A DNA stretch of 64,000 nt, from NCBI GenBank assembly GCA_028284155.1, contig JANQSF010000130.1, positions 1 to 64,000 on the forward strand. Reading direction: 5' to 3'. The DNA is from Phycisphaeraceae bacterium. Lineage in GTDB: Bacteria > Planctomycetota > Phycisphaerae > Phycisphaerales > Phycisphaeraceae. The notes beneath the pieces are model-generated. The model saw nothing but the letters and a program-made list of their open reading frames with translations. It was not told the DNA's origin and did no database searches. Below, piece after piece: positions 24,458 to 64,000 of the stretch; positions within the stretch are counted from its first letter, which is position 1; each line of letters starts with the position of its first letter. Both the position numbers and the translations under genes were made by a program.

Positions 24458-24461
24458 GGTT

Positions 24462-33822: not shown

Positions 33823-33860
33823 CTTTAACAAAACACGCCGGAATCAAGGCATGACTCACT

Positions 33861-39607: not shown

Positions 39608-40186
39608 ATGATCGATATGAATGGTGTTCAGCAGAGAGTTGCGCTTGCCGTCGTTGCGCTTGCGCTGTTTGCCGGCGGGGCGAACGCTGTACCGGTCACG
39701 GTGGATTTCAGTGGCGAGATTACCGATGGCGAGCTGACGGGTGACACGTTCGACGGATTCGTCACCTACGAGGACACATTGGTAACGGGCGATCCATTTG
39801 GTGAGATCATCGAGCTGATCGATTTCGAGATCGTGTTTAACGGCCCGATGTTTGTCGACACGTTCACGGAACTCGACGCGTTCGGCACGAACGGTATCGA
39901 TTACGGCGTGGAATTCCTTGACGGTGATTTCCTCGGTGTCGGTCTTGTTTCTGATGGAACGGACCCCATCTTCGAGCTCCTACCCGGATTCTTCGATGTG
40001 AGCGAAGCGGCCTTATTCTATGACCCACCCAGCGGCGGACAGTTGGGCGGCACGGGTGACATCACGTATCAGTTGGGCGGCGGCGGTGACGGGGCCATTC
40101 CCGAGCCGGCGTCCGCGGCGATGTTAACGATCGCAGTGCTTTGCCTGGCGCATCGCCGGCGTGAGTCGATGCGATTGACTGACTGA
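39608..40186 (+). CDS. Short PEP-CTERM sorting-signal protein
   Basis: The 192-residue acidic exported protein has a signal peptide (RVALAVVALALFAGGANA) and a C-terminal PEP-CTERM motif. The latter reads AIPEPASAAMLTIAVLCLAH followed by RRRE, that is PEP, a hydrophobic helix and a basic tail. Such proteins are anchored or cleaved by exosortase/archaeosortase-type enzymes. The body is rich in Asp, Glu, Thr, Gly and Phe (VTVDFSGEITDGELTGD) and looks like a small beta domain. No exosortase gene is in the window. ATG codons at 39608 and 39617 are both possible; GAGGAAG supports the first and AAGGA the second. Confidence 0.85.
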   Translation: MIDMNGVQQRVALAVVALALFAGGANAVPVTVDFSGEITDGELTGDTFDGFVTYEDTLVTGDPFGEIIELIDFEIVFNGPMFVDTFTELDAFGTNGIDYGVEFLDGDFLGVGLVSDGTDPIFELLPGFFDVSEAALFYDPPSGGQLGGTGDITYQLGGGGDGAIPEPASAAMLTIAVLCLAHRRRESMRLTD

Positions 40187-40651
40187 GCCGACAATGATTG
40201 GATTCGATGGCTCCCATCGCCTCAAGGCGACTTGATTAGGCGCATGGCTTCGTCTGCGCGCATACCGGGCCGCGCGGACAAGTCATTCGTCTGCCAGATC
40301 AGGTCCCTTCTCACCGGGCCAGACTCCTGCGCAATTCTAATCGTACGCACCGCGTGTGCCTCATCATGCTTTGACAAACGTCCGGTAATTTGATACACCG
40401 ACCCTTGGGTGGAATCAGTCCACCACCGTGGGTGACGTCTGTCGTGGCATTGACGGTTTGTGCCGTTGCATGTTGGAAGTTGTCACGCGTTACTCACTCA
40501 ATTGGAATCATTCTGACTGGCAATCGGCTCGGTCATCTTGTCGCAGTTCCGCTGGTCCTTTGGAGTGGGGCATGTCTGCAGAATCCAGCAACATCCAACT
40601 TCAATGCGCCTAGAACCGGCGGATCTGCCCGACGCTTTTGTTAGGTAGATC
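40187..40651. other. Gene-free stretch before the giant gene
   Basis: The 465-base region likely holds the terminator of the PEP-CTERM gene and the promoter of the giant gene. Small hairpins lie at 40205-40219 (CGATGG/CCATCG) and 40217-40230 (TCGCC/GGCGA). They overlap each other and lack a T-tract. An open frame at 40390-40644 (84 codons) has no recognisable domain and I do not call it. The giant gene has AGG about six bases before its ATG. Confidence 0.45.
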
Positions 40652-43600
40652 ATGAATATCAAGAGTGCGCGTCCCTGGCTGTGTGATGTTCTGCCGACGC
40701 TTCCGACGCGGATGCCCCCACCGCCCCCACTGGCGTGTCGTGGTGGCGGCGATGCCCGTGCGCGGCGGCACACCTTTGCGGCGGTGGAAGCGTTGGAACA
40801 GCGCGTCCTACTTTCGTCGTTCGTGCTGCTGAACCCGACGGCAACATCCGACGTTGCAATGGGGCCTGCGCCCGCATGGTTCACTGTTCCCGATGCGTCG
40901 CCCGTCGAGCTGTCGGCGTGCGGCGTTCGGCCGGCCAGCGCCCCGCTTCAGGCGCAAGGCTCGGGCCAATTGCCCATTGCGTTTGGCCAAACGGCAGTCG
41001 GGGAAATCAGCGACCCCGTTGCGGACGAGTGGTTGTTCGATTTGACGATTTCAGCGGCCGACTTCGATCGACCGTTCTCCATTGTGGTTGACGGCGACGG
41101 TGTGCTCCGACCCATGCTCGAACTGCTGGACACCGGCGGGACGGTGATGGCAACCGGGGCGGCTGGAACTAACACGTTCGACACGCGGATTGATGAGGTA
41201 GTGATCGATGCGGCCGACGGCGCGGGTACATACCAGGTCCGCGTGACGGCGTTCACAACAGAGATGGGCGCTTTCGAGGTTGGCGTTTCCGACGGCCCTA
41301 TTGACACCGTCACACCGATCCCGTTCTCGACCTTCATACCGGGATTCATTGACCGTACCGGCGACGAGGACTTCTACTCATTCGACGCGCAGGCGGGCGA
41401 TGTCGTCACCATCGACGCGGAGGGGACGGGTTTTTCTGCCGACGCGGAGTTGACCGGCCCCAATGGATTCGTCGCGTTAACCGGCGACAGCAATGCCCGT
41501 TCAACCGTGACGCTGACGGAGACCGGGACTTACAACGTGCGCGTGCGCGGCGGCGGCGCGGCATCGGTCGGTCACGGGCCGTTTCTGCTGAGCGTGAGCG
41601 ACCCGCAACCGATGCCGACGGCGATGTCATTCGGCGAACGTGCGCGCGTGGCTATCGGCGTCGAAGGCGACGTGGCGTTGTTCACCTTCCACGCCGACGC
41701 GGCGCACGTGGGCAAGCCGGTGTCGATCGCCGTGTCGTCAGAGTTGGCCGGCCAGTCGTTCCAAGGCCGACTTCAGTTGATCGGTCCGGACGGGATAACC
41801 GTGTTGGCCTCGACATCGGACAACAACACACATGTCTTCGCGCTGGAGATCGACGACTTCGTCCTGCCGGCTGAGGGTGACTACTCGGTCCGGTTCTTCG
41901 ACAGTGGCAACGACCATGTCGGCAATTTCCTGATCGGCATCAGCGATCAGCCGACCCAGTCGGCGACGCCCCTGCCCGCGTTCAACACGACCGTCTCCGG
42001 CTCGATCAACCTGCTGGGCGACGTGGACGAGTACACGTTCACGGGCGCGGTCGGCCAGGTCGTCACCGTCGAGCGCACATCGGGAGGCTCGACGGACATC
42101 ACGCTGATCGCGCCGGACGGGACGGTAGTCGGCGGCGGCGGCGTAAACGACTCACTGATTAACCTGGTCACGTTACCGCAGGCCGGTACGTACACCATTC
42201 GCGTCGAGCCGCGCAACGGCACGGTCGGCACTGAATTGGATAACACGGGCGGGTATAGCTTCGTCGTCTGGACGCCGACGCGCGACCCCATACCGACACC
42301 GATCGCGTTCGGGCAGTCGCTGCCCGCATTGGTCGGCATCCGCGGGGATATCGTCGAGTTCTCGCTCGACGTACAGCCGGAGCATGTTGGGAAGCAAGTC
42401 TCGATCGTCGCTTCAGCCGAATCGAGTGGTCGCGGGTTCAACGGCCGACTGCAACTGATCGGGCCGGACGGTTCGACCATCGTCGCCAGTGTGGCGGACA
42501 ACAACACGCACGTCTTTGCGCAGGAGATCGACGACTTCGTCCCGACCGAGGCTGGGCTTTACACGATCCGCTACTTTGACAGCGGTCACGACCAAACGGG
42601 CGGCTTCACAATTGGCGTCAACACGCAGCCGCTTGAGACACCCCTGCCGTTGCCGGCATTCAATACGACGATCACCGGCGCGATCAACGAATTAGGGGAC
42701 GTTGACGACTACACGTTCGACGCGACCGCCGGTCAGGTCGTGACGATTCAACGTCTGACCAACGGTTCGATCGATATGACACTGTTCGGTCCGGGAGGGT
42801 CGGTCGTCGCGGGCGGCGGCGTCAACGACAACACGCTGCTGAACCTGGTGACACTTCCAGACGACGGGGAATACACGCTACGGATCGAGCCGAGTAACGG
42901 TTCCGTTGGCACTGAACTGGACAACACCGGCGCGTACAGCTTTGTGGTCTGGACGCCGGAACGTTCGCCGACGCCGATCCCGATCACGTTCGGTCAATCC
43001 CTGCCGGGTGAGGTTGCCGTCCGCGGTGACCGCGTGCTCTACAGCCTCGAAGTTCTGCCGGAGCACGTCGGACGTCCGGTGTCGATCATGATGACCCGCG
43101 AGGCGACTGGTCGCGGTTTCAACAATCGGCTTCAGTTGCTGCGTCCGGACGGGTCCGTGTTGGCCAGCGGGGCGGACAACAACAGCCATGTTTTCAGCTT
43201 GGAGATCGACGACGTCACTCTGCCCGAAGCGGGCACGTACACCATCCTCGCGTTCGACAGCGGCAACGACCAACTGAGTCGGTTCAGCGTGGCCGTCAGC
43301 GATCAGCCGACCGAGACTCCGACGGCTGTGCCGATCGGCAGCAAGACGGCCGGCGTGCTAGAGCCGTTCGCCGACGTCGATGAATACACCGTCACGTCGA
43401 CGAGCGGTCAGGCGATCACGCTGTACGTGTCGTCGGCGTCCAGCCAGGACACCGACCTGACCGTTTTACGGCCGGACGGCACGGTCGCGGCTAGCGCCAC
43501 CGGCGGCACCGATTCGACGTTGAGCTTCACGCCCGATGTCGGCGTTACTTACACCGTGCGGATCGAGCCGGGCGGCGGCACGATCAATACCACGCTTACC

Positions 43601-46600
43601 GAAATCGGTGTTTACTTACTCGAAGTCAGCGACGCGTCGAACCCGGCGCAGTACATTCTCGACGCCGGCGGCGACGTTCCGATCGCGTTTGGCCAAACGA
43701 TCGCCGCGACCATCGACAACGCGGCCGACCTGGACAACTACGTTTTTGACGGCCAGCGCAATCAGGTCGTGCGGATCAGCGTCGCGTCGGGGCGTGACCG
43801 CGGCGCGCAGTTGCGTGCCGACGTGCGTTTGTTCGGACCGGGCGGCGTGCAGATCGGCTCCAGCACGAGCGGCAACCACGCCGATTTCAAAGATTTCACC
43901 CTGCCTTCTAACGGGCAGTACCGCATTGAAGTTTCCGGTCGCGGCAGCGATGTCGGGCCGTACGTCGTCGGGCTGAGCGATCGGCCGGTCGAGCAAAACA
44001 CCGCCCCCACGTCGACCCTCTTCAATATCGCGACCGATCCCGCAGACGGCTACATCGGGGATGGACCCGGTGGGCCTTTCAGTAGCGATACGTTATCGAG
44101 CATCCGCGTCGGCAACGGCGGCAGCACGCCAAACCGAGTGTTCCTCAATGCGCTCTACTTCTTCGAGTTGCCGTCATTGACACCCGGCACGATCGACCAG
44201 GCGAGTTTCTCGTTCCCGTACGTCGATGACAATTCCGGTGTACAGATGAACGTGTGGGGGCTTGGTTACGTCTCGACGCCGACGCTTGACACCGACTTGA
44301 CACTCAATGGCAGCAACGACGCCGACGCCGGTCTGGGGGTCGCGTCGCGCACGTTGATCCAGGCAGATGTCGTCAACGGCATCCCCGACCCGAACAACAC
44401 GGCCGTGGAGGTGTCAACAGACGCCACAGGCGGCGCGAACCTCACAGCGTTTATCAAGAGTCTTTACGCCGCCGGCGCGCAGCCGGGCGACTTTGCCGTA
44501 ATCCGGCTCAGCCCGCAGCAGGGCAGCGATCCCAACGCCGGTGGCACAACCGGGCACGTCGTCGGCTTCAGCGAACTGGATGGTGGCGCGATCCAGCCGA
44601 CGCTCACGTTCACCGCCGACGCCGTACCCGTCCTGACGCCCGGTGAACAGGTCGGCGGTTCGATCGAACGATTGGCCGACGAGGACATCTACCGCTTCGA
44701 TTACAACAACCAGACCGATCTGATCCTTCGTGCCCGAAGCACGGACAACACGCGCGCGTTGGACATGCAGATCATCTCGCCGGCCGGCACGGTCGTGCGC
44801 AGCTTCAGCGGCACGACCGTCGGCGGCAACATCGTGTTGCCCGTGCCCGGTCAATACTCCGTGCTCCTGCGCGCCAGTGCCACGTCGAACAACGACGGCA
44901 CGCGGACGACCGATTACCTGTTGGACTACGACTACTCTGCGGCAACCCCGTCGACCTTACCGGGCGAGCCGAGCGGTCCGATCGCGAGTCTGTTCAGCGT
45001 CGCCGTCCCGGGCACACCGACCGGCGCGGGCGAGCCGCCTGTGGCCGTGCCGCCGCTGCCGACCGTCGTGCAGGGCTTCGACGATCTGGGCCCGACGAAT
45101 CTGCCATTCGAGTCGCCCTTCATCGGGCAGTTTCCAAGCGGCAGCGGACGACACGTTTTCACCTTTGATGCCACAGCCGGTGACACGGTGTTGATCGATG
45201 TCGAAGCGACGTCGCGGACGAGTGTCAGCGCGGTGCTGCGCGACCCGAACGGCGTGCCCATCAGCACCGACACCAACGGCGGCAGCGCATCGGTCGGCGG
45301 CACGATCTTCGCGACCGGCACGTACGAGTTGGAAGTGACCGGCAGCGGCGGTGGCGGGTTCGTCGTGACGTCGTCCAGTCGCAATGCGCAGGTTTCGACT
45401 CAGATCGTGCTCAACGATCCGGGCCTGGTTACCACGTTAGACACACCAGCCGGCCAACAGATCTACACCTTCGATCTGGCCACACCGACCACCGTCGACC
45501 TGCGTGTCGATCCGATCAACGGCAGCCTGTTCGATAGCCTTCTGATCCTCGAAGGGCCTGACGGCCAACAAGTTGCCGCGACCAACAGCGGCACGTCGTC
45601 CGTGCTCAACGACCTGCACCTTTCGGCGACGGGCACGTACACCGTTGTCGTTCGGCCGTCACTGCCCTCGGGCGGGCACGGCGCATATGTGATCAGCCTG
45701 AACACCGGGACGACCACCACAATCACGCCCGATGTCGATGGCACGATCGGGTTCGGTGAAAACGCCTCGACCACCATCGACGGCGCGAACCCCGAGACGC
45801 AACTCACATTCGATGTGCTGCCCGATCAAGTCGGCAAACCCGTTTCGGTCGTTGTATCAAGAAACCTGACGGGCGCGGGATTCCAAAGCCGGCTGCGTGT
45901 CTTTGGGCCCGACAATGCCTTGCTGGCCAGTGTGTCGGACAATAACAGCCACGTCTTCGCCCTGGAGATCGACGACCTGATCCTGCCGGTCGCGGGCACT
46001 TACACAATTCAACACTTCGATAGTGGCAACAACAACTCCGGCAACTTTACGATCGCACTGAGCGACCAGCCGATCGAGACGCCGTCGCAACTTGGCGGGT
46101 CGCTGCTGCGCTTCACGTTCGACGACCAAACCGACCCGACCGCTAATTTGGGCACGCTGGGCTCGAACCATGATGGCGACCTGCGCGGCAACGCTACGTT
46201 TGTTCCCTTCGCCGGCGGCCACGCGGTGTCGCTGGATGGCAACAACAGCGTCGTCTCAGTGGGTGGGAGCGGGTCGTTGCTCAATGTCGGCGACGCCGAC
46301 TTCTCCATTTTCGCCCGCGTGCAGACATCGAGCGCCGAGCCGGGTCAAACGGACCATCGATTCATCGTCGGGCGTGACAACACGGGATTCGACCCCACGC
46401 ACGCCGTCCTGATCCAGCGCGACACCGGCATCCCCAAATTCAGCTTGGTCGATGGCGTCGATTTCGTCGTTGTGGCCGGTACGACCCCGATCAATGATGG
46501 AGTCCCACACGAACTGCTCGCCGTGCGCGAAGGCGATGAGATGAAGCTGTTTGTCGATGGGGTGCTCGAAGGGTCCGCCGTCCTCCCCGGGGGATTCGGC

Positions 46601-55600: not shown

Positions 55601-58600
55601 GACGATATCCTGACGGTCACGCACCCGAACCTGGTCCCGTCGATCACCAACGCGCCGGCCAACGTCACGAGCGGCGACACGTTCGCTGTGTCATTCAATG
55701 TGACCAACGCCGGCTCGGGTGACGTCGACGTGAATTGGGTTGACCGGGTCTACCTGTCGTTGGACACGACATTCGACGCCAACGACCTGTTACTGAACGA
55801 GGTCGGCCGATCCGCCCCACTGCCCTCCGGTGACACGGTCGGGGCGACCGTCGATGTGTCAACGCCCGTCAGCGTGTCGGGCACACGGTTCATCCTTGTG
55901 GTGACCGACGCGGTCAATGACGTGAACGAGGTCGGCGACGAGGGCGACAACGTCGTCTCCAGCGTCGTGCAAATCGAGTTGGCGCCGTATGCGGACCTCG
56001 AGGTATCAAACGTCGTGGTCAGCGGGTTCGACGTGACCTCGCCGAGTGACGTTTTCGTCGACGACCCGGCGACGATCACCGTCGACTGGACGGTGACCAA
56101 CAACGGCACGGGCGCGGGGCAGACTGGTTCATGGGTCGACCGCGTCTACGCCAGCACGGACGACACCTTCGGCGACGCCGACGACATCCTGTTGGCCGAG
56201 TTCCCGCACAACGGCGCACTGGCTGTCGGTGACGACTACACCGAGTCGCAGTCGTTCTTGCTGCCGCCCGCATTTCAAGGTCGTTTCCGTGTATTCGTCC
56301 ACACCGACGCGGCCGATGTGGTTTTCGAGAACAACCTGGAGGTCAATAACCGCGCCGCGTACGGTGAGTTCGTTGACGTGACGAGGGTTCCATATGCCGA
56401 CCTGATCGTCACCGACTTCAACGCCGACAACACGGGCGAGAGCGGCAACCCGATTCAGATCTCGTGGACGGTCCAGAACAACCCCGCCAACGCGATCGGC
56501 CTGACGACGGTGACGGCCTGGAACGACACCGTCGACCTGGTCACCAACGCCGACGGTACGGGCTTCATCACGCGCCTCGGCACATTCCAGCACACCGGCC
56601 ACCTGGCCGTGGGCGATTCCTACCAGCGCGTCGTCAACGCCGTGTTGCCCAACGGGATCAGCGGCGACTTCTTCCTGAAGGTCACGGCCGGGCCCGGGCC
56701 GTTTGAATTCATCTACACGGACAACAACACGGCCGTCACCGGCCCGATCACCGTCGAACTGGGCGACCCACCCGACCTGGAAGTCACGGACCTTACTGCG
56801 CCGACCACGGCGCTGAGCGGCTCGACCGTCGACCTGACGTGGATCGTGCGCAACGACGGGTTGGCCGACGCGGTGGGCACGTGGTCGGACACGGTCCGCC
56901 TACGCGACGTTTCCGACTCGACACGGGTGTTCACCCTCGGTTCGCGCACGTACACCGCGGGGCTCGACGCCGGGCTGTCGTACATGCGGCAGGAGCAGTT
57001 CAATCTGCCCGTCAATGTCGACGGCGTGTTCCGAGTCGAGGTGCAGACGAATTCAAATAACGCGCTGTTCGAGCCCAACAAAGACAACAACACGCTGCAG
57101 GACGACCAGACGATCGTCGTGTCGCTGGTCCCGCGCGCCGACCTGCAGGTTCTCTCGATCGACGCGCCGCCGACAGCCAGCGCGGGCGGAACGGCACAAC
57201 TGTCGTTTGTTGTGGTCAACCAGGGCACGGTCGCAACGAACACGCCCAACTGGACCGACCGCGTCTACCTGTCGTTGGATAACACGATCAGCAGCGACGA
57301 CGTGCTGGTCGCGTCGATTCCGAATCAGTCGGCCCTGGACCCGGGGCAGCAGTACCAGTCGTTCTCCCCCAGTTTTGTGATCCCCAAACGATTCCGGGGC
57401 GAGGTGTTCCTGATCGTCCAAGCCGATGGCTCGAACCAGCAAAACGAGTTCCCCAACGAGAACAACAACACGCAGGCCGTCGCCATCGACATCGACCCGA
57501 TCCCCCCCAGCGACCTGGTCACCAGCGACGTGATCGCGCCGGCGCAGGGCTTCGACGGCACACAGATTTCGGTGACGTACACGGTAACCAATCGCGGCGC
57601 TGGTCCGACGAACGTCGACAACTGGACGGACCAGATATGGCTGGTGAGCGATCCGGGCCGACCCGATGCGCGCAACGACGAGACCGACTTCCTGATCCGC
57701 ACGGTGGGGCGCTCAGGCGGTCTCGAAGTCAACGAGAGCGCGACGTATACGACGACGGTCACACTGCCCAAGGGCGTCACGGGCCAGTATTTCATCCTGC
57801 CGTTCAGCGACGCGTACGACGTGGTGCTGGAAGACACGAACGCCGATTTTATCAACCCGGACGACCCGAACGAACTGGACAACAACAACTACAAGGGTCG
57901 GCCGATCACGATCCTGACGACACCGCCCAGCGACCTGGCGGTGATCGATGTCGACCCGCAACCCGTGGGTCTCGGCGGCGAGCCGTTCCACGTCGAGTGG
58001 ACGGTCAGAAATATCGGCGGCAACCCGGCCGAGACCGACGCCTGGTTCGACGATGTGTACCTCAGCAGCGATCCAAACCGCAACGCGCCAGGCGCGGTGA
58101 CGTGGTTACTGGGCAGGGTGTTGCACGAAGGCGGGCTGGGTGTTGACGAGACCTACACAGGCGTGCTGGATGAGGTCCTGACTCCGGCCGCCGCGGGCAT
58201 GTATGTCATCGTCGAGTCGAATACCTTCGGCGGGCCGAACGAGCCGAACCGCAGCAACAACACCGGCTCCGCGCCGACGGTGGTTACGAACAACCCGGCC
58301 GACCTGATCGTGACCGATGTCAGCGCGTCGCAAATGAACTTCTCCGGTGAGTTGGCGACGATCAGTTGGACGGTCGAAAACGTGGGCGCGCCGGTGTGGG
58401 AAGGCACACAATACTGGACTGACCAAGTCTGGTTGTCACCCGACCCGGTGTTTATTCAGGACAGGGCCACCGCGTTGGGGCTTGTTTTCCATACACCCGA
58501 TGGCGTGCTTGGCACGAACGAAAGCTACACACAAACCGAAGAGTTCAGTCTACCCCCAGGCATTGACGGCGACTTTTACATCTACATCAGAACGAATGCC

Positions 58601-61600
58601 GGCGGCACTTTGAGTCCGTTTGGGGGCAACAACAAATCTAACCGAGGTATCTATCAAAACCGAGTCTTCGAGGACCCGTCGAACAACCTCGGCAGCACGC
58701 CGATCCCCGTCGTTTATCGCGAGCCGGATCTCTTCGTTTCCGACCTGATCGTACCGTCGTCACCTCCCCAGGCCGGCGACACGATCCCGATTACGTTTAC
58801 GGTGACGAACCTGGGCGGGCGCGACACGCGCCGCGGCAACTGGATCGACCGAATCTACCTGTCGACCGACCCTTCGCTAGACACATCCGACCAACTGCTG
58901 GGCTCCGCGGCGCGCGGCGGGCAGATTCTGCCCTCGGGTGATGACTACACGGTCACTAGGAATGTCCGCCTCCCCGATGGGATCGAGGGCGACTTCCACA
59001 TCCTCGTCTTCACCGATTCCAACTTGGAAGGCCCGTTGCCGCCTGCTGTTCCGGGGATCAATTTCGAATTCCGAATCAACCGCGTACTGGCACGCGAAGG
59101 GGAGTACCGCGACGAGGGCAACAACGTGACCGCCGCGGCGTTGCCGATCAACGCCGCGCCGTCTCCCGACCTGCGTGTCTCGCAAGTCAACGCGCCGACG
59201 AATGTCACCGTCGGCCAGGACTTCACGGTCAACTGGACGGTCACGAACTTCGGCTCAGTTCCCACGTCGGACCTCACGCCGAGTTGGGATGACTTGGTCT
59301 ATCTTTCGCGCGACGAGTTCCTCGACCTCAATGCCGACCTGTATCTGGGCAGCGTGGGTCACTTCAACGGGCTTGATGCGCTGAGCAGCTACACCGAGTC
59401 GCTCACGGTCAAAGCACCGACATCGATCGAAGGGCCTTATTACGTCTTCGTCGTAACGGACCCGGTACGGAACAGTGCGCCGCGCGGCAAAGTGTTCGAA
59501 GGCGGCGCCGAGTTGAACAATGCGACGCCGACGGCAATACCCACGATCTTCGAGTTGCCCCCGCCGGCCGATCTTCTCGCCGAAGACATCGTCGTACCTG
59601 GCGCAACACGCTCCGGCGACGACGTTGACATCTTTTTCACGGTCACCAACCTCGGCCCCAACGTGGCCAAAGGCTCGTGGTCGGACGCCGTCTACCTCTC
59701 GGTCGATGGCGTGTGGGACATCAACGACCCGTTCCTCGGCCGAGTGTCGTTCTCCGGTCAGGTCGCCGCGGGTGATTCGTACACGCAACTGCTTCAGACC
59801 AAGATCCCGCCGGTCAAACCGGGGTCGTACCGGCTGATCGTTCGGCCGGACATTCTCAATCAAGTCTTCGAAGAGGCGGGCGAGGGGAACAACTTCACCC
59901 CGTCTGCCGACACGCTCACCCTCACCGTCGACACGCTGCAATTGGGCGTGCCGTTCGACTTCACGCTCGACCCGAAACAGGAGCGGCTGTTCCAGGTCGA
60001 CGTCGGCCTTGGCCAAACGTTGCAGACCGATTTGTTCGGCACGATGGGCGCGGCGAACGAGTTGTTCATCCGCTACAACGACGTGCCGACCGGTGTCGTG
60101 TTCGACGCGGCGTATGACGGCGTTCTCATGGCCGACCAACGCGCGATCGTGCCCTCGACCGAACCGGGCACGTACTTCATCCTCGTGCGCGGGCACAGCG
60201 AACCGCGCAACGACGCGCCGGCAACCCTGCTGGCCGACACGCTGCCGTTCATGATCACCGATGTGTTCACCGACCGCGGCGGCGACAGCCGCTATGTCAC
60301 CACACGCATCACCGGCGCGCAGTTCCACGAGGACGCGATCGTCAAGCTCGTGCGCCCCGGCATCGCCGAGTACGAGCCAGTGCGCTACGAGGTGCTCGAC
60401 TCGACTCGCATCCAGGCGATCTTTGATCTGACCGACGCCCCGCACGGCCTATACGACGTCAAGGTGATCAATCCCAGCGGTGACGAGGCGGTGGTGCCCT
60501 ACCGCTACTTGGTTGAGCAGACGCTGCCGCAGGACGTGACGGTCGGCTTGGGCGGTCCGCGCGTGCTCGCCCCGGGCGCGACGGGGACCTACGGGTTCTC
60601 GGCGCTCAGCCGGACGAACATCGACACGCCATACGTTTACTTCGAGTTCGGCATCCCTGAATTGGGTTTGAACGACAAGCTGTTCAATCTGCCATTTGTC
60701 ACGTTCACGTCGAATCTTCGCGGCGCACCGGACGACGACCGGCTCGACGCGCTGGGCCTGACGGACGTGCCCTATGCGAGTTTGATCAGCGACATCAACG
60801 CCGAGCCGCACCCGGGTCAGATCCTTGCGCCGGGGTACGTGATCGACCTGGACACACGCGGCTTCGTTGGCGCGACGTTCAACGTCGAGGTCTACAAAGG
60901 GCTGGCCGAAATCCTGGAAGCGAATCCCGACGCGTTGGAGGACATCGAAGACGACGATATCGCGTTCATATTCAGCATCCTCGCCGCCGGCACGCCGATG
61001 ACGCGGGACGAGTTTATCGAACGACAAACAGCGGACGCGCTGCGCATGCGCGAAGCAATCCTGGCCGACCCCGATCCGTCGGCAGACACGTTGCAGTTCA
61101 TCGCCGCCAACGCCAACGAGTGGGTCGCGTTCCACCTAGCCGCGTTGGAGGAGGCAGGTCTGCTGCGCCCCGAGGACGAAGCCCCACCGATCCGCGAGAG
61201 TGCGCTGGTCAACAGCCTTCTCTCGACACTCGCCACAGGACTGATTGTCGGGCCGGGCGGCGAGTCGATCTTGGACGACGCAAACGAAGCCGGCGGGAAC
61301 CTCATCGACTTTTTCGAAGACGTGCGTCGGTGGTACGGACACGACCCGGATCAGGAAGGCGAACGACTCCCACCGGCCGACGAGTTTGACCAGGGGTTGA
61401 CACAGCCGACCGACTTCGAGGCGTTCAACATCTTTGTGCCATACGGCGAGGTGATGCTGGATATCCCGCCAGCCGCTGTGCCGCAGCCGCCGGATTTTGG
61501 CCGATTCCTCGAACTGCCCGGCCAGACCGCCGACCTGGCGACGCTGACCGGGCCGGTCGGCTTTGGCAGCGAGAACTTCATCCCCGCGGCGCTTGGGCCC

Positions 61601-64000
61601 AAGGGTGTCCCGTTGCCTTACCAAGTGCAGTTCGAAAACTCGTCTGATTCGGTGCGCACCGCCAGCGAAGCGCGCGTCGTGATCGACTTGGACCCAAATC
61701 TTGATCCGTTGACCTTCCAACTGGGCGACCTGCGCATCGGCGACATTCAGGTAAGCCTGCCGCCGGGGCGTGGTTTCTTCCAGGGCGAGTTCGACTTCAC
61801 CGAATCCAAGGGGTTCATTCTGCGCGTCAACGCCGGACTCGAGCCGGTCGACAACATCGCGCAGTGGTTGATCCAGGCGATCGACCCGCGCACGGGCGAA
61901 CTGCTGGACGACCCCGACTTCGGCCTACTGCCGCCAAACGACGCAGACGGCGCGGGCACGGGGCTCGTCTCTTATACCATCCGACCGAAGGCGGGCCTGA
62001 CGACCGGGACGGAGATCAACACGCAGGCACGTGTGCTGCTCAACACCGCCGCGCCGGTTGACACCACGGTGTCGACGGTCACCGCCGACGCCGTTGCGCC
62101 CACAACTGAACTGACCAGGTCAAGCCTGCCCGGCAACGACGTGCTGCTCGAGTGGACGGCCGACGACGACGTGATGGGCAGCAGCGTGGCGGGTGTGAGC
62201 CTGTTCGTCGCGCGCAACGGCGGCAACTACGAACTGGTCACGGCGTTGTCGACCGACGATTCGTTCGTCTTCGACGGTGTGGCGGGCGAGACGTACGAGT
62301 TCCTCGCGTTGGCCGTCGACAACGCGGGCAACCGCGAAACGCCGCCGTTGGGCGTCACCTCGCCTGACGACGGATCGAGCGTCAACCTCGGCGCGCTGCC
62401 ATCCTTTGACCGCACCACCGCGCCGAATCTGGGCGAACCGGCGGCGCAAAGCCCCAACCCGTCGACCAACCCGCTATTCGTTGAGGCCGAACTGGGTGTG
62501 CCCGCGACGCCCGTAACCATCGGCGCAAGCGAGTACGGGACAGTCCTGCAACCGTTCGAGGGCAGGCAGTTCGCCACGGGCATCGGCCCGAGTCACGCGA
62601 ACATCGGCCCGATGGCAATCACCACCACGCCCGACGGTTCCGTGCTGGCCAGCGGAGGCCTGAACCGCGGTGGCCTGTACCTCTTCCCGTTCGAGGGCGG
62701 CGACGCCTCCGACCCGGACGTGCCGGGCGAGCTGCTGACCATCCTGCCCCACCCCGTATTCGACCTGGCGTTCGACGCCAACGGCGGCCTGTGGGCCGCG
62801 ACCGGCGGCGGACCGCTCCTGCAACTCGACCCGACCACCGGCGGCATCGTCGGTGAGTTCGGCGACAGCCTCACGCAGACGCTCGCCGTCGACCCACAAA
62901 CCGGCGAGGTCTACATCTCGTCCGGCGACGGCATCGAGATCTTCGACCCTGTTGCGCAAACGTTCCGCCACTTCAGCGACCTGCGCGTGGGCAACATGCG
63001 CTTCGCGCCAGACGGCTCGCTCTGGGCCGCGGTCTGGCCGGACCGCGGCGAGGTCGTCCGGTTCCAGCGGTCCACCAACCCGCTGGACCGTGGCGGGCTG
63101 GTTGACGACCCGCAACTCATGCTGCGCTATCAGGAACAGATCGACTCGATCACGTTCGGTGTACCGGGTTCAGATCTTCAGGACTTGTTGTTCATCACGA
63201 CCAACGGGGACCGGTTCGGCCGATCGGGCGGGGCGCTGATCATGGTCGACCTGGCGACGTTGCAGAGCGTGACCATCGCCGAGATGGGCACGCGCGGCGA
63301 CGTCCTGCGCGCGACGCCTGACGGCCGCGTGCTGGTCAGTCAATCGAACCAGATCGACGTCATCAGCCCGATCGTCGCGCCGCAGGTTGCGTTCGTCAGC
63401 CCGCCGGACGATTCGCTGGTGGCGCTGCCGTTCGGCATGATCGTCGTCGCGTTCGACCAGGACATGTTCCAGGGCCAGGGCGACGAGGCAGGGTCTGTGC
63501 TCAACGCGGACAACTACGCGCTGAGCAACGACCGAGGCGACGTGTTCACGCCAGTGTCCGTGCAGTACGACACCGACACGCGAAGCATACTGCTCATTTT
63601 CGACGCCCTGGAACCGGGCATTTTTGACTTCACCATCGAAGGGCGGGTCGAAAGTGCCAAGGGCCTGGCGATGGGCGATGACTTTACGTCGAGTTTCACG
63701 GCCGTGTCTGACTTCACGGCGTTGGTTGACATTCAGTTCACCAATCCGCGTTCGGATCGCGCGACGGCAACCGTTTCTTACGACGTGGTCATCACAAACA
63801 CAGCGACACACGACCTGCTGCTGCCACTGTTGCTCGTGCTCGATCCGCTGGACGGCTTCCGCGGCGTGCCGCAGGGCAACGCGGGCGTCAACCAGGACGG
63901 GGCGTTCCTGATCGACCTGACCGACGTGCTGCCGCCTGACGGCAGACTTCAACCAGGTGAATCGACGACGGGTCGCACGCTGGTGATCGACAACATGGTC
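40652..64000 (+). CDS. Giant multi-domain LEPR-XLL surface/secreted protein (3' end outside the window)
   Basis: The frame runs 7,783 codons to the window edge without a stop, roughly 0.8 MDa and unfinished. The start is fixed: an in-frame TAG lies at 40646-40648, two codons before the ATG. The N-terminus carries LEQRVLLS (residues 48-55), a variant of the planctomycete LEPR-XLL motif that marks very large exported proteins; no ordinary signal peptide is seen. Order by residue: PPC/beta-sandwich repeats (about 60-3150) with inserted DNRLRE-like, LamG-like, propeller and carbohydrate-binding-like modules; CARDB (3260-3387); a multi-LamG cassette (3410-4502); CARDB array (4503-6417); IPT-like (about 6540-6620); FN3-like (7167-7233); beta-propeller (7303-7567); Big_5-like (7577-7677). 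It is probably an adhesin or matrix protein. No catalytic domain was recognised. Confidence 0.9.
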   Translation, partial: MNIKSARPWLCDVLPTLPTRMPPPPPLACRGGGDARARRHTFAAVEALEQRVLLSSFVLLNPTATSDVAMGPAPAWFTVPDASPVELSACGVRPASAPLQAQGSGQLPIAFGQTAVGEISDPVADEWLFDLTISAADFDRPFSIVVDGDGVLRPMLELLDTGGTVMATGAAGTNTFDTRIDEVVIDAADGAGTYQVRVTAFTTEMGAFEVGVSDGPIDTVTPIPFSTFIPGFIDRTGDEDFYSFDAQAGDVVTIDAEGTGFSADAELTGPNGFVALTGDSNARSTVTLTETGTYNVRVRGGGAASVGHGPFLLSVSDPQPMPTAMSFGERARVAIGVEGDVALFTFHADAAHVGKPVSIAVSSELAGQSFQGRLQLIGPDGITVLASTSDNNTHVFALEIDDFVLPAEGDYSVRFFDSGNDHVGNFLIGISDQPTQSATPLPAFNTTVSGSINLLGDVDEYTFTGAVGQVVTVERTSGGSTDITLIAPDGTVVGGGGVNDSLINLVTLPQAGTYTIRVEPRNGTVGTELDNTGGYSFVVWTPTRDPIPTPIAFGQSLPALVGIRGDIVEFSLDVQPEHVGKQVSIVASAESSGRGFNGRLQLIGPDGSTIVASVADNNTHVFAQEIDDFVPTEAGLYTIRYFDSGHDQTGGFTIGVNTQPLETPLPLPAFNTTITGAINELGDVDDYTFDATAGQVVTIQRLTNGSIDMTLFGPGGSVVAGGGVNDNTLLNLVTLPDDGEYTLRIEPSNGSVGTELDNTGAYSFVVWTPERSPTPIPITFGQSLPGEVAVRGDRVLYSLEVLPEHVGRPVSIMMTREATGRGFNNRLQLLRPDGSVLASGADNNSHVFSLEIDDVTLPEAGTYTILAFDSGNDQLSRFSVAVSDQPTETPTAVPIGSKTAGVLEPFADVDEYTVTSTSGQAITLYVSSASSQDTDLTVLRPDGTVAASATGGTDSTLSFTPDVGVTYTVRIEPGGGTINTTLTEIGVYLLEVSDASNPAQYILDAGGDVPIAFGQTIAATIDNAADLDNYVFDGQRNQVVRISVASGRDRGAQLRADVRLFGPGGVQIGSSTSGNHADFKDFTLPSNGQYRIEVSGRGSDVGPYVVGLSDRPVEQNTAPTSTLFNIATDPADGYIGDGPGGPFSSDTLSSIRVGNGGSTPNRVFLNALYFFELPSLTPGTIDQASFSFPYVDDNSGVQMNVWGLGYVSTPTLDTDLTLNGSNDADAGLGVASRTLIQADVVNGIPDPNNTAVEVSTDATGGANLTAFIKSLYAAGAQPGDFAVIRLSPQQGSDPNAGGTTGHVVGFSELDGGAIQPTLTFTADAVPVLTPGEQVGGSIERLADEDIYRFDYNNQTDLILRARSTDNTRALDMQIISPAGTVVRSFSGTTVGGNIVLPVPGQYSVLLRASATSNNDGTRTTDYLLDYDYSAATPSTLPGEPSGPIASLFSVAVPGTPTGAGEPPVAVPPLPTVVQGFDDLGPTNLPFESPFIGQFPSGSGRHVFTFDATAGDTVLIDVEATSRTSVSAVLRDPNGVPISTDTNGGSASVGGTIFATGTYELEVTGSGGGGFVVTSSSRNAQVSTQIVLNDPGLVTTLDTPAGQQIYTFDLATPTTVDLRVDPINGSLFDSLLILEGPDGQQVAATNSGTSSVLNDLHLSATGTYTVVVRPSLPSGGHGAYVISLNTGTTTTITPDVDGTIGFGENASTTIDGANPETQLTFDVLPDQVGKPVSVVVSRNLTGAGFQSRLRVFGPDNALLASVSDNNSHVFALEIDDLILPVAGTYTIQHFDSGNNNSGNFTIALSDQPIETPSQLGGSLLRFTFDDQTDPTANLGTLGSNHDGDLRGNATFVPFAGGHAVSLDGNNSVVSVGGSGSLLNVGDADFSIFARVQTSSAEPGQTDHRFIVGRDNTGFDPTHAVLIQRDTGIPKFSLVDGVDFVVVAGTTPINDGVPHELLAVREGDEMKLFVDGVLEGSAVLPGGFGTADTNAPLMIGGRLAAGLTTDDFIGVIDEVAFSTSGFAQQVAGEINPIGDVDEHTFAGTAGTVITVERTSGSHVDLTLLRPDGSVLAGGGVNDSLINLVTLPTDGVYTVRVEPRNGTVGSELDDTGSYGFAVWTPTRNPAPISLDFGQSVPVSIPIRGDRAFLEFEALPEHVGKQASLVVSSNLTGAGFNSRLQLRDPDGVLIASAADNNSHVFALEIDDFTIEKVGTYEILFFDSGNDQTGNFNIGLSDQPIESAFPLGSPEPAPESDLQIVEPGWALTRTLTLEQAVAAHFNPADGLLYVSQRLSSGGLYRFENDGTATLLDGFSNPGVIGIDPNDGDVFVAEDFGGNIYRLGFGETSRSTWVSGFRSGDDDPAGIAFVPSDYTGTVVNPGDALSVDRGSGGSDDIWLWSPDTAQGESLLHDDDGTMTDPVDITVSSDTIYVVDANGGDSRIYMVGAGGALTQLVTSEPLVNANAIDFDPTSGMLYVGERANRVLRVNPATGDVSVMFSGFENVWWGGLDVSADGTQIAISERTSGQVHVFTNVAASFNEVVSGTINPLGDVDEHTFFALAGTVVTIERTSGNFIDLTLFGPDGSVVAGGGVNDTLLNLVTLPADGVYTVHVEPANGTVGTELDNTGNYSFVVWTPTRDPVPIPITYGQEVQIDLPIRGDIAELTFDVQAQDIGKQVSILVSSELSGRGYNGRLQVRDPNGVLIGSVADNNTHVFAQEVDDYVLTEVGTHTIRFFDSNHDQTGSFRVALSDQPIDTTTAIPGFNSTVNGSITPRGDVDEFTFTMPLPGDNSVLFNGGAESGDLSGWAADVSGTSSGNGDIIASVTSQPQTGPTVLPFAGSRFFTFGNEAAGSVGSGAVLSQSGTAGLNTSTLTLRGRVQTETGDTGEAVLTFLDSSGGVLDSQSTGVLTSDFAWTEFQFSAPVPAAAAEWRVDLIGDLGNGTFINAFFDSIELLTPSPSRVVTIERTSGNHVDLTLFGPDGSVVAGGGVNDILLNLVTLPDDGTYTVRVEPSNGSVGTELDSTGDYSFIVRTPSANPVPTPIAFGESVRVDLPIRGDVALLSFEALPEHVGQPISIVASSNLTSAGYNGRLQLFGPNNAFLAGVSDNNTHVFAQEIDDYLLPTAGTYTIKFFDSGNDQTGSFNIGLSDQPIPAGTEPIVADDPALARQISPVGDVDQFTFDALRGQAFNVFVDALPASLFLDATILDSTGEVRASFTGSNDANISEFVAPEDDTYTIRVEPGGGSVSDRLDNTGDYTIGLEQIVTTPNLVVTAVNPPTEPDIVSGDTVSFSFTVENIGNAATPVSDWSDRAVLSTNATYGDADDIELSVDAHSGALTPGQTYTVNATGDIPEGVSGDFFVIVETDTNNQVLELFAEDDNVTSSAATFHVDPAPYPDLVIEDLMVEVGVVGEPSTTVAYWQFDDATPGDGLNSGDTVTLTDSVGGHDLTAAGSGGFTADSDQPVVNIPNPDGSAGFNGDPVANFGSLNSPGAATGGARLATSTTDAFDLSGRSWTLEGWFNHNGSTPAGFGDIIAGTRDTPDFGGFTLRVTAAHFLTATFLESGGAADSLTVQTSTPITSNEWHHFALIWQDGAGANGSGLAELYLDGAMVGQTDAPAAFDAAVADSNDEDALIIAGREAVGENNFDGLLDEMRFSAVALSPSEFLNAASAAGNALSFDGVDDLVQVGNLGARPTTGTISFWMRADVVENFRNPFTTGPITADGSMGNQAIRFEESSNGGFVTIIGADNADFSTGWTAHNFTGSLVQDRWYHVALAWDSDNDRVVGFLDGQEVFDATNSTWPSNFNNVTVGAGWSTGRHWQGQIDEVRIWDVMRNENQIHGDMNRSLAGDEPGLVAYYRFDEAGGTTAVDSSSSGNDGTLGGGNAAAEPVRVASTAPITSSTLSFTDGDFAGWTSEPINSAAGGQTTQRVSTGGNPDAFWEVTTATNDATFTFHSHPSFVYDPADGPIESITFELEYMNIAFFGQGQVVGFALKHGDSYFGIAGDVTGPAGLGTWNALSTAGTAFVEGDFVPLNGSTGTLDFDGEPITLGFRTSNSGGNTIQVGYDNFHATVVTTSNDSGDNSGPALPVTTGLLAHFRADEGVSETGGLVDQWDDLSGGDHDVGNTGDDRPTLVPDVVNGLPALRFDGNDRLLGSLGETLSGASIFALFQYTVASSDNDYLYTIGDNGISGSQMPLSRRSGERAYHFDGAVANFPPGTQITANEFHISAQVFGERGADSHDLYLDGNDTPLLSTNANNDYNVNGNTFIVGDWNADANHFVGDLVELIVFDRTLSKNERDAVEDYLQERLNVPPTAGGIAAEFNGLRPSSESNPWVYLGDLDEATHVTDNGDGTFNINDDVGSFPPDNRARYRKDVSWESGQRVVEWRSRTNSASPGTSNYTVALNLATGSRLVAVHLAPNSVNFFQNSGGQTIGNSQSISAGYHSYRLEVDESEAGQARLFVDNVLTLEEPLSSFSTTTVEHIEFGARSESGTSSSDWDYVRIPQSLPLTTGHAVTWNTANRGDGDADGGFTERVTVRNVTTDTELVNTTLGVADDLPAGATLPGTFNFNATTPGRYQVQVTTDVADDFFEFNANGHDDAETNNTSTVEFVIDGSDLVVTDLSAPTDLIIGDPADVPISWTVENQGPADTFRSNWVDRVYLSTDNVIGNGDDVQIDEFTRFGALGSGLDYTQNQTVTLPGGLRGQFFLYVTTDANNVEPEPDGEGNNDSALATIDVVEPYADLVVEVVTGTPNNALSGRPIDIDWRVRNNGTGTTNVSSWVDRVVLSDDDVLDAGDTELARVTRNGTLSVNANYTAQTTVNLPQGIEGNFHIFVVTDVEGQVFEFNFEGNNTGRTIDPINIARLPEPDLVVSDATNPTEGQPGQMISVSFAVDNVGEGDAEASWVDRVYLSTDGTLNGASLLATVSRDADVSGHGGAGGTGGTYDVTTDVTVPSVADGEYRIVVVTDDADDVFEGLPGSAGETNNLLVSDDILTVTHPNLVPSITNAPANVTSGDTFAVSFNVTNAGSGDVDVNWVDRVYLSLDTTFDANDLLLNEVGRSAPLPSGDTVGATVDVSTPVSVSGTRFILVVTDAVNDVNEVGDEGDNVVSSVVQIELAPYADLEVSNVVVSGFDVTSPSDVFVDDPATITVDWTVTNNGTGAGQTGSWVDRVYASTDDTFGDADDILLAEFPHNGALAVGDDYTESQSFLLPPAFQGRFRVFVHTDAADVVFENNLEVNNRAAYGEFVDVTRVPYADLIVTDFNADNTGESGNPIQISWTVQNNPANAIGLTTVTAWNDTVDLVTNADGTGFITRLGTFQHTGHLAVGDSYQRVVNAVLPNGISGDFFLKVTAGPGPFEFIYTDNNTAVTGPITVELGDPPDLEVTDLTAPTTALSGSTVDLTWIVRNDGLADAVGTWSDTVRLRDVSDSTRVFTLGSRTYTAGLDAGLSYMRQEQFNLPVNVDGVFRVEVQTNSNNALFEPNKDNNTLQDDQTIVVSLVPRADLQVLSIDAPPTASAGGTAQLSFVVVNQGTVATNTPNWTDRVYLSLDNTISSDDVLVASIPNQSALDPGQQYQSFSPSFVIPKRFRGEVFLIVQADGSNQQNEFPNENNNTQAVAIDIDPIPPSDLVTSDVIAPAQGFDGTQISVTYTVTNRGAGPTNVDNWTDQIWLVSDPGRPDARNDETDFLIRTVGRSGGLEVNESATYTTTVTLPKGVTGQYFILPFSDAYDVVLEDTNADFINPDDPNELDNNNYKGRPITILTTPPSDLAVIDVDPQPVGLGGEPFHVEWTVRNIGGNPAETDAWFDDVYLSSDPNRNAPGAVTWLLGRVLHEGGLGVDETYTGVLDEVLTPAAAGMYVIVESNTFGGPNEPNRSNNTGSAPTVVTNNPADLIVTDVSASQMNFSGELATISWTVENVGAPVWEGTQYWTDQVWLSPDPVFIQDRATALGLVFHTPDGVLGTNESYTQTEEFSLPPGIDGDFYIYIRTNAGGTLSPFGGNNKSNRGIYQNRVFEDPSNNLGSTPIPVVYREPDLFVSDLIVPSSPPQAGDTIPITFTVTNLGGRDTRRGNWIDRIYLSTDPSLDTSDQLLGSAARGGQILPSGDDYTVTRNVRLPDGIEGDFHILVFTDSNLEGPLPPAVPGINFEFRINRVLAREGEYRDEGNNVTAAALPINAAPSPDLRVSQVNAPTNVTVGQDFTVNWTVTNFGSVPTSDLTPSWDDLVYLSRDEFLDLNADLYLGSVGHFNGLDALSSYTESLTVKAPTSIEGPYYVFVVTDPVRNSAPRGKVFEGGAELNNATPTAIPTIFELPPPADLLAEDIVVPGATRSGDDVDIFFTVTNLGPNVAKGSWSDAVYLSVDGVWDINDPFLGRVSFSGQVAAGDSYTQLLQTKIPPVKPGSYRLIVRPDILNQVFEEAGEGNNFTPSADTLTLTVDTLQLGVPFDFTLDPKQERLFQVDVGLGQTLQTDLFGTMGAANELFIRYNDVPTGVVFDAAYDGVLMADQRAIVPSTEPGTYFILVRGHSEPRNDAPATLLADTLPFMITDVFTDRGGDSRYVTTRITGAQFHEDAIVKLVRPGIAEYEPVRYEVLDSTRIQAIFDLTDAPHGLYDVKVINPSGDEAVVPYRYLVEQTLPQDVTVGLGGPRVLAPGATGTYGFSALSRTNIDTPYVYFEFGIPELGLNDKLFNLPFVTFTSNLRGAPDDDRLDALGLTDVPYASLISDINAEPHPGQILAPGYVIDLDTRGFVGATFNVEVYKGLAEILEANPDALEDIEDDDIAFIFSILAAGTPMTRDEFIERQTADALRMREAILADPDPSADTLQFIAANANEWVAFHLAALEEAGLLRPEDEAPPIRESALVNSLLSTLATGLIVGPGGESILDDANEAGGNLIDFFEDVRRWYGHDPDQEGERLPPADEFDQGLTQPTDFEAFNIFVPYGEVMLDIPPAAVPQPPDFGRFLELPGQTADLATLTGPVGFGSENFIPAALGPKGVPLPYQVQFENSSDSVRTASEARVVIDLDPNLDPLTFQLGDLRIGDIQVSLPPGRGFFQGEFDFTESKGFILRVNAGLEPVDNIAQWLIQAIDPRTGELLDDPDFGLLPPNDADGAGTGLVSYTIRPKAGLTTGTEINTQARVLLNTAAPVDTTVSTVTADAVAPTTELTRSSLPGNDVLLEWTADDDVMGSSVAGVSLFVARNGGNYELVTALSTDDSFVFDGVAGETYEFLALAVDNAGNRETPPLGVTSPDDGSSVNLGALPSFDRTTAPNLGEPAAQSPNPSTNPLFVEAELGVPATPVTIGASEYGTVLQPFEGRQFATGIGPSHANIGPMAITTTPDGSVLASGGLNRGGLYLFPFEGGDASDPDVPGELLTILPHPVFDLAFDANGGLWAATGGGPLLQLDPTTGGIVGEFGDSLTQTLAVDPQTGEVYISSGDGIEIFDPVAQTFRHFSDLRVGNMRFAPDGSLWAAVWPDRGEVVRFQRSTNPLDRGGLVDDPQLMLRYQEQIDSITFGVPGSDLQDLLFITTNGDRFGRSGGALIMVDLATLQSVTIAEMGTRGDVLRATPDGRVLVSQSNQIDVISPIVAPQVAFVSPPDDSLVALPFGMIVVAFDQDMFQGQGDEAGSVLNADNYALSNDRGDVFTPVSVQYDTDTRSILLIFDALEPGIFDFTIEGRVESAKGLAMGDDFTSSFTAVSDFTALVDIQFTNPRSDRATATVSYDVVITNTATHDLLLPLLLVLDPLDGFRGVPQGNAGVNQDGAFLIDLTDVLPPDGRLQPGESTTGRTLVIDNMV
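44010..44620 (+). other. DNRLRE-like module within the giant gene
   Basis: After the repeat linker SDRPVEQN the protein has a non-PPC segment of about 200 residues. It contains IRVGNGGSTPNRVFLNALYF and VFLNALYFFELPS, a pattern like DNRLRE / carbohydrate-binding proteins that report broken-chain loops. The following PPC-like sequence resumes at VGGSIERLADEDIYRFDYN. The family assignment is tentative. Confidence 0.5.
46090..46730 (+). other. LamG-like module inserted at a repeat linker
   Basis: After SDQPIETP comes a concanavalin-like domain. It has LLRFTFDDQTDPTANLGTLG, the block HAVSLDGNNSVVSVGGSG, FIGVIDEVAFSTSG at the end, and DEMKLFVDGVL in between, all LamG features. The repeat then resumes at AGEINPIGDVDEHTF. 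Landmark spacing shows about 609 extra nt (203 codons). Confidence 0.75.
47390..48255 (+). other. Beta-propeller-like (NHL/SMP-30) module inserted at a repeat linker
   Basis: The segment repeats NHL-style blades: FNPADGLLYVSQRLSSGGLY, IGIDPNDGDVFVAEDFGGN, IDFDPTSGMLYVGERANRVL and GLDVSADGTQIAISERTS. It begins after SDQPIESAFPLG and ends before VVSGTINPLGDVDEHTF, the same linker as the LamG insertion upstream. Spacing shows about 864 extra nt (288 codons). Confidence 0.75.
48990..49508 (+). other. Carbohydrate-binding-like module inserted inside a PPC repeat
   Basis: The strand DVDEFTFT at 48962 is normally followed 48 nt later by the conserved IERTSG segment; here the distance is 564 nt, so about 516 nt (172 codons) are extra. 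The inserted protein has GGAESGDLSGWAADVSG at its start and NAFFDSIELL at its end, a jelly-roll pattern typical of carbohydrate-binding-like domains. The DNA looks poorer in G+C than its flanks. Confidence 0.7.
50430..50815 (+). repeat. Isolated CARDB-like domain before the cassette
   Basis: The segment NLVVTAVNPPTEPDIVSGDT, the block SWTDR-equivalent DWSDRAVLSTN (Trp at 50555) and the closing LELFAEDDN fit CARDB (cell-adhesion-related bacterial domain). Confidence 0.7.
50878..54160 (+). other. Multi-LamG cassette splitting a CARDB-like domain
   Basis: A CARDB-like domain opens at 50822 (DLVIEDLMVEVGVVGEPS). About 3,284 nt later the matching second half appears (VTWNTANRG at about 54178, then FTERVTVRN at 54223). 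Between them lie LamG-like modules (VAYWQFDD, WTLEGWFNHNG; then LSFDGVDDLVQVGN; then LLAHFRADEGVSE) and a carbohydrate-binding-like stretch (DGDFAGWTSEPINSA). A further sandwich domain (GIAAEFNGLRPSSESNPW) ends in WDYVRIP. Boundaries are estimated to about 15 nt. Confidence 0.75.
54160..59900 (+). repeat. Tandem CARDB-like array
   Basis: The core W-x-D-x-(V/I)-x-L recurs with its Trp at 54596, 54971, 55343, 55736, 56132, 56519, 56882, 57251, 57623, 58043, 58415, 58841, 59285 and 59678. Spacings are 363-444 nt (121-148 residues). Typical text is SWVDRVYLSTD; each unit opens with DLVV-x-D and ends with an acidic E-x-NN motif. CARDB domains form seven-stranded sandwiches and extend surface proteins. 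Copies are diverged, unlike the more similar upstream PPC repeats. Confidence 0.9.

What the first reader, a model, noticed from the sequence alone, without database searches (positions are those of the whole stretch)
40652..64000. Giant LEPR-XLL protein of more than 7,783 residues that leaves the window
A single frame stays open for 23.3 kb and is still open at the last base. The start is bounded by an in-frame TAG two codons upstream. The N-terminal LEQRVLLS matches a planctomycete motif for very large exported proteins, and the domain chain is adhesin-like. How such a protein is exported and anchored is unknown: there is no classical signal peptide, and the neighbouring PEP-CTERM gene hints at a sortase-like route that is not visible here.
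Basis: partly seen in the sequence, partly recalled or inferred. Interest (0 to 1): 0.65.

Follow-up and report, generated by a model that had tools for sequence, protein, structure and literature searches.

The report
Giant planctomycete LEPR-XLL surface protein pair
A planctomycete bacterium carries a 13,138-residue gene for a probable cell-surface fibre, facing a similar giant gene; the far end, outside the window, looks like a secretion tail, but the matching secretion machine was not found in the genome.

Summary
The frame at 40652 is open to the window's end. On the same contig it runs on to a TAA at 80066-80068, giving 13,138 aa. It is a real coding sequence: codon-position GC is steady throughout, and a ~5,900-aa core is collinear at 38-45% identity with proteins of other planctomycetes. 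A second giant lies tail to tail, 346 bp away. Its N-terminal half appears to lie on contig C35.

The C-terminus, outside the window, carries RTX repeats and a type I secretion target domain over the curated cut-off in both giants. Neither giant ends in a PEP-CTERM signal. However, no type I exporter reached a curated cut-off in this genome. Only the two giants have this tail in own, relative and phylum searches. An orthologue in G063 keeps the LEPR-XLL leader and core but ends in an unnamed tail shared with other LEPR-XLL proteins.

I read it as a new member of the known LEPR-XLL/RTX giant surface proteins, with the export route unsolved.

The parts
40652..64000 (+). In-window part of the giant ORF (aa 1-7783 of 13,138; continues on the same contig to TAA at contig position 80066-80068)
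40781..40816 (+). LEPR-XLL motif (EALEQRVLLS; aa 44-55) after an Arg-rich leader without a hydrophobic core
   Evidence: NF012209 19.0 bits, cut-off 17; same place 19.8 bits
41363..41551 (+). PPC domain, best of 4 stretches in aa 1-1000 (238-300)
   Evidence: PF04151 139.4 bits for the piece
45149..45343 (+). PPC domain (aa 1500-1564)
   Evidence: PF04151 54.6 bits
46238..46639 (+). Laminin-G-like domain (aa 1863-1996)
   Evidence: PF13385 31.4 bits
50432..50782 (+). CARDB domain (aa 3261-3377)
   Evidence: PF07705 28.2 bits
51143..51625 (+). Laminin-G-like domain (aa 3498-3658), best of 2 in the piece
   Evidence: PF13385 122.8 bits
54176..64000 (+). In-window part of the conserved core (aa 4509-10397), starting with a CARDB array
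   Evidence: collinear with Aquisphaera insulae L106 (44.7% over 6001 columns), giant 2, G063
39608..40186 (+). Neighbouring PEP-CTERM-like protein with signal peptide; considered and not part of the giant's mechanism

Best explanation
Shown: the gene encodes one 13,138-aa polypeptide with a basic LEPR-XLL leader and no Sec signal. It continues with PPC, LamG and CARDB domains, a conserved ~5,900-aa core (CARDB array, Ig-like repeats, Rhs-like and dockerin pieces), PKD, a metzincin-like HELGHLLNFPD site, tandem cadherin-like repeats, RTX repeats and a type I secretion target domain at the extreme C-terminus. Inferred: it is a secreted cell-surface fibre of the adhesin kind. It leaves the cytoplasm unfolded in one step across both membranes. 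The LEPR-XLL leader, common to this protein, its paralogue, its orthologue and dozens of other proteins of the genome, is the address label. The C-terminal module (RTX here, an unnamed solenoid-like tail elsewhere) is an exchangeable cap that folds outside, with calcium in the RTX case, and pulls or anchors the chain. Identity as an exported giant surface protein is the firm part. The leader as the decisive export signal is the most likely but unproven step (I give it about 0.5 on its own; the type I route in the first rival about 0.3).
For: One open frame with steady coding GC pattern. Core collinear with Aquisphaera insulae, ARS65, G063 and alphaproteobacterial MAGs. Against giant 2, L106 and L105, 2nd codon positions differ less (0.34-0.36) than 3rd positions (0.49-0.53). 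The last ~600 aa of the two giants are 76% identical against 42-44% for the core, while synonymous change among identical residues is only somewhat lower (mostly 0.24-0.44 per 50-codon bin against 0.40-0.43), so the tail is under protein-level constraint. LEPR-XLL is over its cut-off in giant 1, giant 2 and the G063 orthologue, 3 of 3 with a readable N-terminus, while their tails differ. LEPR-XLL: 34 places over cut-off in this genome and 78 of 151 genomes, while a type I ABC reaches the cut-off in 0 of 151.
Against: No experiment shows export, and nothing here shows that the leader is recognised by anything. The LEPR model is only 24 positions, with E-values near 1e-3 to 1e-2 for this gene. 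At E<=10 it rang in 7 of 14 control genomes, 1 over cut-off, though in 0 of 14 at E<=0.01. The RTX/type I target domain is itself a known export signal, so the leader may be secondary. No receptor or exporter for the leader was identified.
Confidence: 0.6

Rival explanations
1. Type I secretion substrate: the C-terminal RTX/VCA0849-type domain is recognised by an ABC exporter with adaptor and TolC-like channel, and the chain leaves C-terminus first, as for LapA-type RTX adhesins. The LEPR leader plays a retention or other part.
For: TIGR03661 27.3 and 24.7 bits (cut-off 17.6) at the extreme C-termini of giants 1 and 2. Serralysin C-terminal matches in NCBIfam and PDB. Strong constraint on the tail. 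A Vibrio giant of ~8000 aa combines N-terminal LEPR-XLL with C-terminal RTX and serralysin domains (PMC10868602, one passage read).
Against: TIGR03375: 37 matches in the genome at E<=1e-20, none over cut-off. The 4 that reach into the membrane domain score best as MsbA or MsbA-related. TIGR01843: 8 matches, best 38.7 of 208.65 bits. The one TolC-like protein scanned scores 52.8 of 225.15, next to an RND-type adaptor. In 151 genomes 0 over the ABC cut-off. The orthologue in G063 lacks the tail.
Confidence: 0.3
2. Exosortase (PEP-CTERM) sorting, hinted by the neighbouring gene.
For: The neighbour 39608-40186 has a signal peptide and PEP-CTERM-like end.
Against: Neither giant ends in a PEP-CTERM segment; both end in an RTX/type I target domain. 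No signal peptide on the giant.
Confidence: 0.02
3. Artefact or decayed gene: misassembly or an untranslated relic.
For: Draft assembly in 161 contigs; the second giant is split at a contig end.
Against: Continuous frame and codon pattern; collinear homologues in independent genomes, including a named strain, A. insulae JC669; constraint.
Confidence: 0.04

Closest known systems
LEPR-XLL/RTX giant of Vibrio sp. VB16 subclade (~8000 aa; PMC10868602, one passage read)
   Same: N-terminal LEPR-XLL, C-terminal RTX and serralysin-type domains, giant size
   Different: Other phylum; body not compared here; type I secretion is usual in Vibrio (recalled), not found here
Planctomycete giant genes (Fuerstia marisgermanicae, 45 genes >5 kb, biggest 36,239 bp; PMC5177795, passages read)
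   Same: Phylum, size class, surface/adhesion-type domains
   Different: No LEPR-XLL leader or RTX tail discussed in the passages read; this gene is 39.4 kb and faces a paralogue
LapA-type RTX adhesins with type I secretion
   Same: Repeat-rich stalk, RTX block, C-terminal type I target domain
   Different: LEPR leader where LapA has a retention module (recalled; not tested here); no cognate exporter found
Homologous giants in Aquisphaera insulae JC669 (L106), Phycisphaeraceae ARS65 (L105) and G063
   Same: Collinear ~5,900-aa core (38-45% identity; shorter overlap in L105)
   Different: Other C-terminal ends; N-termini of L105 and L106 not available

Membership tests
LEPR-XLL proteins (NF012209) | N-terminal LEPR-XLL motif over the curated cut-off | tested here: met
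   19.0 bits vs 17; giant 2 20.3 bits
LEPR-XLL proteins (NF012209) | Very large protein (the model's name LEPR-8K; meaning recalled) | tested here: met
   13,138 aa; but many LEPR frames in this genome are short, down to 172 aa
RTX adhesins / type I secretion substrates | RTX nonapeptide block near the C-terminus | tested here: met
   PF00353 25.2 bits vs 23 in giant 1; giant 2 22.4, just below
RTX adhesins / type I secretion substrates | Type I C-terminal target domain | tested here: met
   TIGR03661 27.3 and 24.7 bits vs 17.6
RTX adhesins / type I secretion substrates | Cognate ABC exporter, adaptor and outer-membrane channel in the genome | tested here: inconclusive
   None over cut-off, but the assembly is 95.7% complete in 161 contigs
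RTX adhesins / type I secretion substrates | N-terminal retention module and LapG/LapD control | not tested
   no search run
PEP-CTERM / exosortase substrates | C-terminal PEP-CTERM segment | tested here: not met
   C-terminus is RTX/type I target domain
Fibrillar adhesins | Many stalk repeats | tested here: met
   CARDB, He_PIG, Big_9/Cadherin, PKD stretches
Fibrillar adhesins | Adhesive function at the surface | not testable with these tools
   needs experiment

The most novel reading that the evidence does not exclude
LEPR-XLL leaders define an export and surface-display route of planctomycetes that is not type I, II or IX secretion and not exosortase. An Arg-rich, non-hydrophobic N-terminal leader is paired with exchangeable C-terminal caps: an unnamed solenoid-like domain (alignment A3) in many cases, an RTX/type I target domain in the two giants. 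The exporter is unidentified.
Probability: 0.25. Interest if true: 0.75.

Novelty: new member of a known kind. Interest (0 to 1): 0.45.

Why it matters
Planctomycetes are among the bacterial phyla richest in giant proteins (PMC11573180, PMC5177795, passages read), and how these chains leave the cell is open. This pair makes the question testable. An orthologue shares leader and core but not the tail, and the tail scores as a type I target domain in a genome where no type I exporter was recognised. Either a new kind of exporter handles the leader, or a divergent type I machine does.

Tried and rejected
The first genome-contig scan with the tail alignment A1 found no relative (301 pattern matches, none confirmed); the patterns fell upstream of the type I domain. 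The genome search with TIGR03661 did not list the C49 tails although the direct scan puts them over cut-off. Its first look is lossy for this model, so I used A1 instead; such counts are lower bounds, and the absence results for TIGR03375 and TIGR01843 rest on the same kind of first look. In the phylum search 17 of 392 genomes matched A1 at E<=1e-7, but the 16 other than the window's own match only columns 2-101, none of them the type I end from about column 120 on. TIGR03696 was a poor first choice; it showed Rhs cores in 3 other frames.

Rejected: PEP-CTERM sorting (tail sequence); artefact (collinear homologues); 'LEPR-XLL means type I secretion' as a general rule here. One search tabulated 34 LEPR frames other than giant 1 (33 over cut-off and one below). 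I fetched the ends of 20 of the 34. The 14 left out: 8 of 608 aa or less, 3 that run off their contig (C151, C154, C105), and 3 of 778-926 aa (C100, C103:175598, C126). Of the 20, 3 ran off the contig (one of them, C35, is the presumed N-terminal half of giant 2); of the 17 with a stop none shows the giants' tail and 8 share the A3 tail.

The PDB search of aa 10451-11450 gave one weak match (E 0.013).

Full report
What is there. The window is bases 1-64000 of contig C49 (98,060 bp) in a 7.2-Mb draft genome of 161 contigs, 95.68% complete. The frame from ATG 40652 is open to 64000 and ends at TAA 80066-80068, giving 13,138 aa. An in-frame TAG at 40646-40648 bounds the start. Chance runs of this length do not occur: 20 order-1 Markov contigs of the same size reached 557 codons at most. 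The codon-position GC pattern is unbroken along the frame. No DNA tandem arrays were found in the in-window part.

Domains (aa numbering). LEPR-XLL 44-55, 19.0 bits vs cut-off 17. PPC stretches at 238-300 and elsewhere in 1-1000, 1500-1564, 2033-2095, 3169-3235 (the last 20.7 bits, below Pfam's 25.9); LamG at 1863-1996, 3498-3658 and weakly 4170-4291 (21.3 bits, below 27.6); CARDB from 3261 to about 6271. He_PIG/Ig-like repeats from the 7451-8450 piece on, dockerin about 9270-9320, Big_2 about 9555-9594, PKD about 12076-12144. A metzincin-like HELGHLLNFPD at 12283 (metzincin pattern recalled). Four Big_9/cadherin-like repeats in 12451-13138, RTX 13010-13044, type I target domain 13055-13126. 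Residues 10451-11450 had no Pfam match.

A second giant. On the minus strand, 346 bp beyond the stop, a frame runs from the contig end 98060 down to 80415 (5,881 aa). It has the same kind of tail, 76% identical over the last 598 columns. Its N-terminal half appears to be on contig C35, whose LEPR-XLL frame (18384-38276, 6,631 codons) runs off that contig. Giant 1 residues 4509-8366 align to the C35 frame up to its last residue, and residues 8366-9738 align to the C49 frame from its first residue (42-44% identity). The contig ends share 4 bases in phase. The join is an inference; it would give about 12.5 thousand residues.

Is it real and conserved? The core, aa 4509-10397, is collinear with one frame of the named strain Aquisphaera insulae JC669 (44.7% over 6001 columns). 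aa 7356-10434 match the Phycisphaeraceae MAG ARS65 (42.9%), and two alphaproteobacterial MAGs match at 35-39%. It also matches a 10,951-aa LEPR-XLL frame of G063 (37.6% over 5992 columns, plus 12231-12927). Third codon positions differ more than second positions in all four comparisons made: two parts of giant 2, L106 and L105. The giants' tails are conserved at protein level beyond what their synonymous divergence explains. Some homogenisation between the two inverted tails is not excluded, since their synonymous change is slightly lower than in the core.

How it leaves the cell. There is no Sec-type hydrophobic segment. The C-terminus is an RTX block followed by a domain over the TIGR03661 cut-off in both giants (27.3 and 24.7 vs 17.6), with serralysin-type matches in NCBIfam and the PDB. 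On that ground alone it would be filed as a type I secretion substrate. The machinery does not follow. TIGR01843 gave 8 matches, none over cut-off. TIGR03375 gave 37 at E<=1e-20, none over cut-off; 4 cover the membrane part, and all 4 score best as MsbA or MsbA-related. One TolC-like protein, beside an RND-type adaptor, scores 52.8 of 225.15. Among 151 genomes (own plus 150 relatives) 0 pass the TIGR03375 cut-off and one, G006, passes E<=1e-120. G006 has no LEPR-XLL match. Planctomycetes as a phylum do include genomes with predicted type I systems (PMC4793230, passages read), so absence here is a lineage or detection matter. The missing ~4% of the genome could hide one.

The leader and the tails. 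LEPR-XLL is at 34 places over cut-off in this genome (50 at E<=10) and in 78 of 151 genomes at E<=0.01. In the 30 places that I read, it sits 16-175 residues from the frame's beginning, usually after an Arg-rich stretch. I fetched the ends of 20 of 34 other LEPR frames; 17 hold a stop. None of the 17 has the giants' tail. Eight share a solenoid-like C-terminal domain (solenoid by eye) with no match in Pfam or NCBIfam in the 4 scanned (3 own proteins plus G063, E<=1). The G063 orthologue of the giant ends in this domain too, so leader and core stay while the tail is exchanged. A search of the genome with this domain (A3) hit 18 frames. Eight had been used to build A3. Of the other ten, one is a 113-aa contig fragment, seven have a LEPR match in the same frame (four of these below the LEPR cut-off), and two do not (C35, 1,404 aa; C53, 1,503 aa). 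In two of the seven (C87, C41) the domain is not at the C-terminus. The leader and this domain thus tend to go together.

Taxonomic reach of the giants' tail. The A1 search found it in 0 of 150 relatives at E<=1e-12. In the phylum, 17 of 392 genomes match at E<=1e-7, but the 16 others match only the Calx-beta-like first half (the name Calx-beta is recalled).

Reading. Identity as an exported giant surface protein of the LEPR-XLL/RTX kind is well supported. A Vibrio giant with the same two ends is in print (PMC10868602, one passage). The LEPR-XLL term occurs in only 2 papers of the searched library; the second only names a protein hit. I found no paper on LEPR-XLL export in the searches. I commit to the leader as the more likely export label because it is the constant element. 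I keep type I secretion by the tail as a strong rival.

Surroundings. The rest of the window is ordinary: a chemotaxis cluster (CheB, CheX, HDOD, CheR, MCP, CheW, CheA; 22.5-32.8 kb), planctomycete cytochrome/DUF1592 and DUF1552 genes, a sulfatase and housekeeping genes. No tRNA or Rfam family was found.

Noticed in passing
L065 9598-14136 (+) (G000:C62:17598-22136): One 1,512-aa frame joins an MsbA-like ABC exporter (aa 76-558) to a GspD-like secretin (aa 1022-1195); an internal Met with a signal-peptide-like stretch near aa 653 suggests either a true fusion or two genes without a stop between.
   Followed up: partly
alignment A3; L082, L085, L087, L090, L092, L093, L096, L098, L121: Unnamed solenoid-like C-terminal domain shared by LEPR-XLL proteins, without Pfam or NCBIfam match in the 4 scanned.
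   Followed up: partly
G039:C1:365084-405628: A 13,515-residue LEPR-XLL frame in a single-contig relative, not homologous to the core, ending in a dockerin-like region (dockerin by eye).
   Followed up: partly
L084 (G000:C87) and L094 (G000:C159): LEPR-XLL frames that end in an Rhs core (TIGR03696) and in a CFVAGTPV motif resembling pretoxin-Hint (recalled, not tested).
   Followed up: no
window aa 4501 onward (about 54150): GC at third codon positions steps up from about 0.77 to 0.87 where the conserved core begins, as if the N-terminal 4,500 aa were a later addition.
   Followed up: no
contig 72701-72730 (giant aa 10684-10693): A lipase-like stretch HFIGHGRGAV has Gly where a nucleophile Ser would stand in GxSxG (hydrolase kinship recalled, no Pfam match).
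   Followed up: no
window 22510-33822: Chemotaxis gene cluster with CheA, CheW, MCP, CheR, HDOD, CheX and CheB.
   Followed up: no
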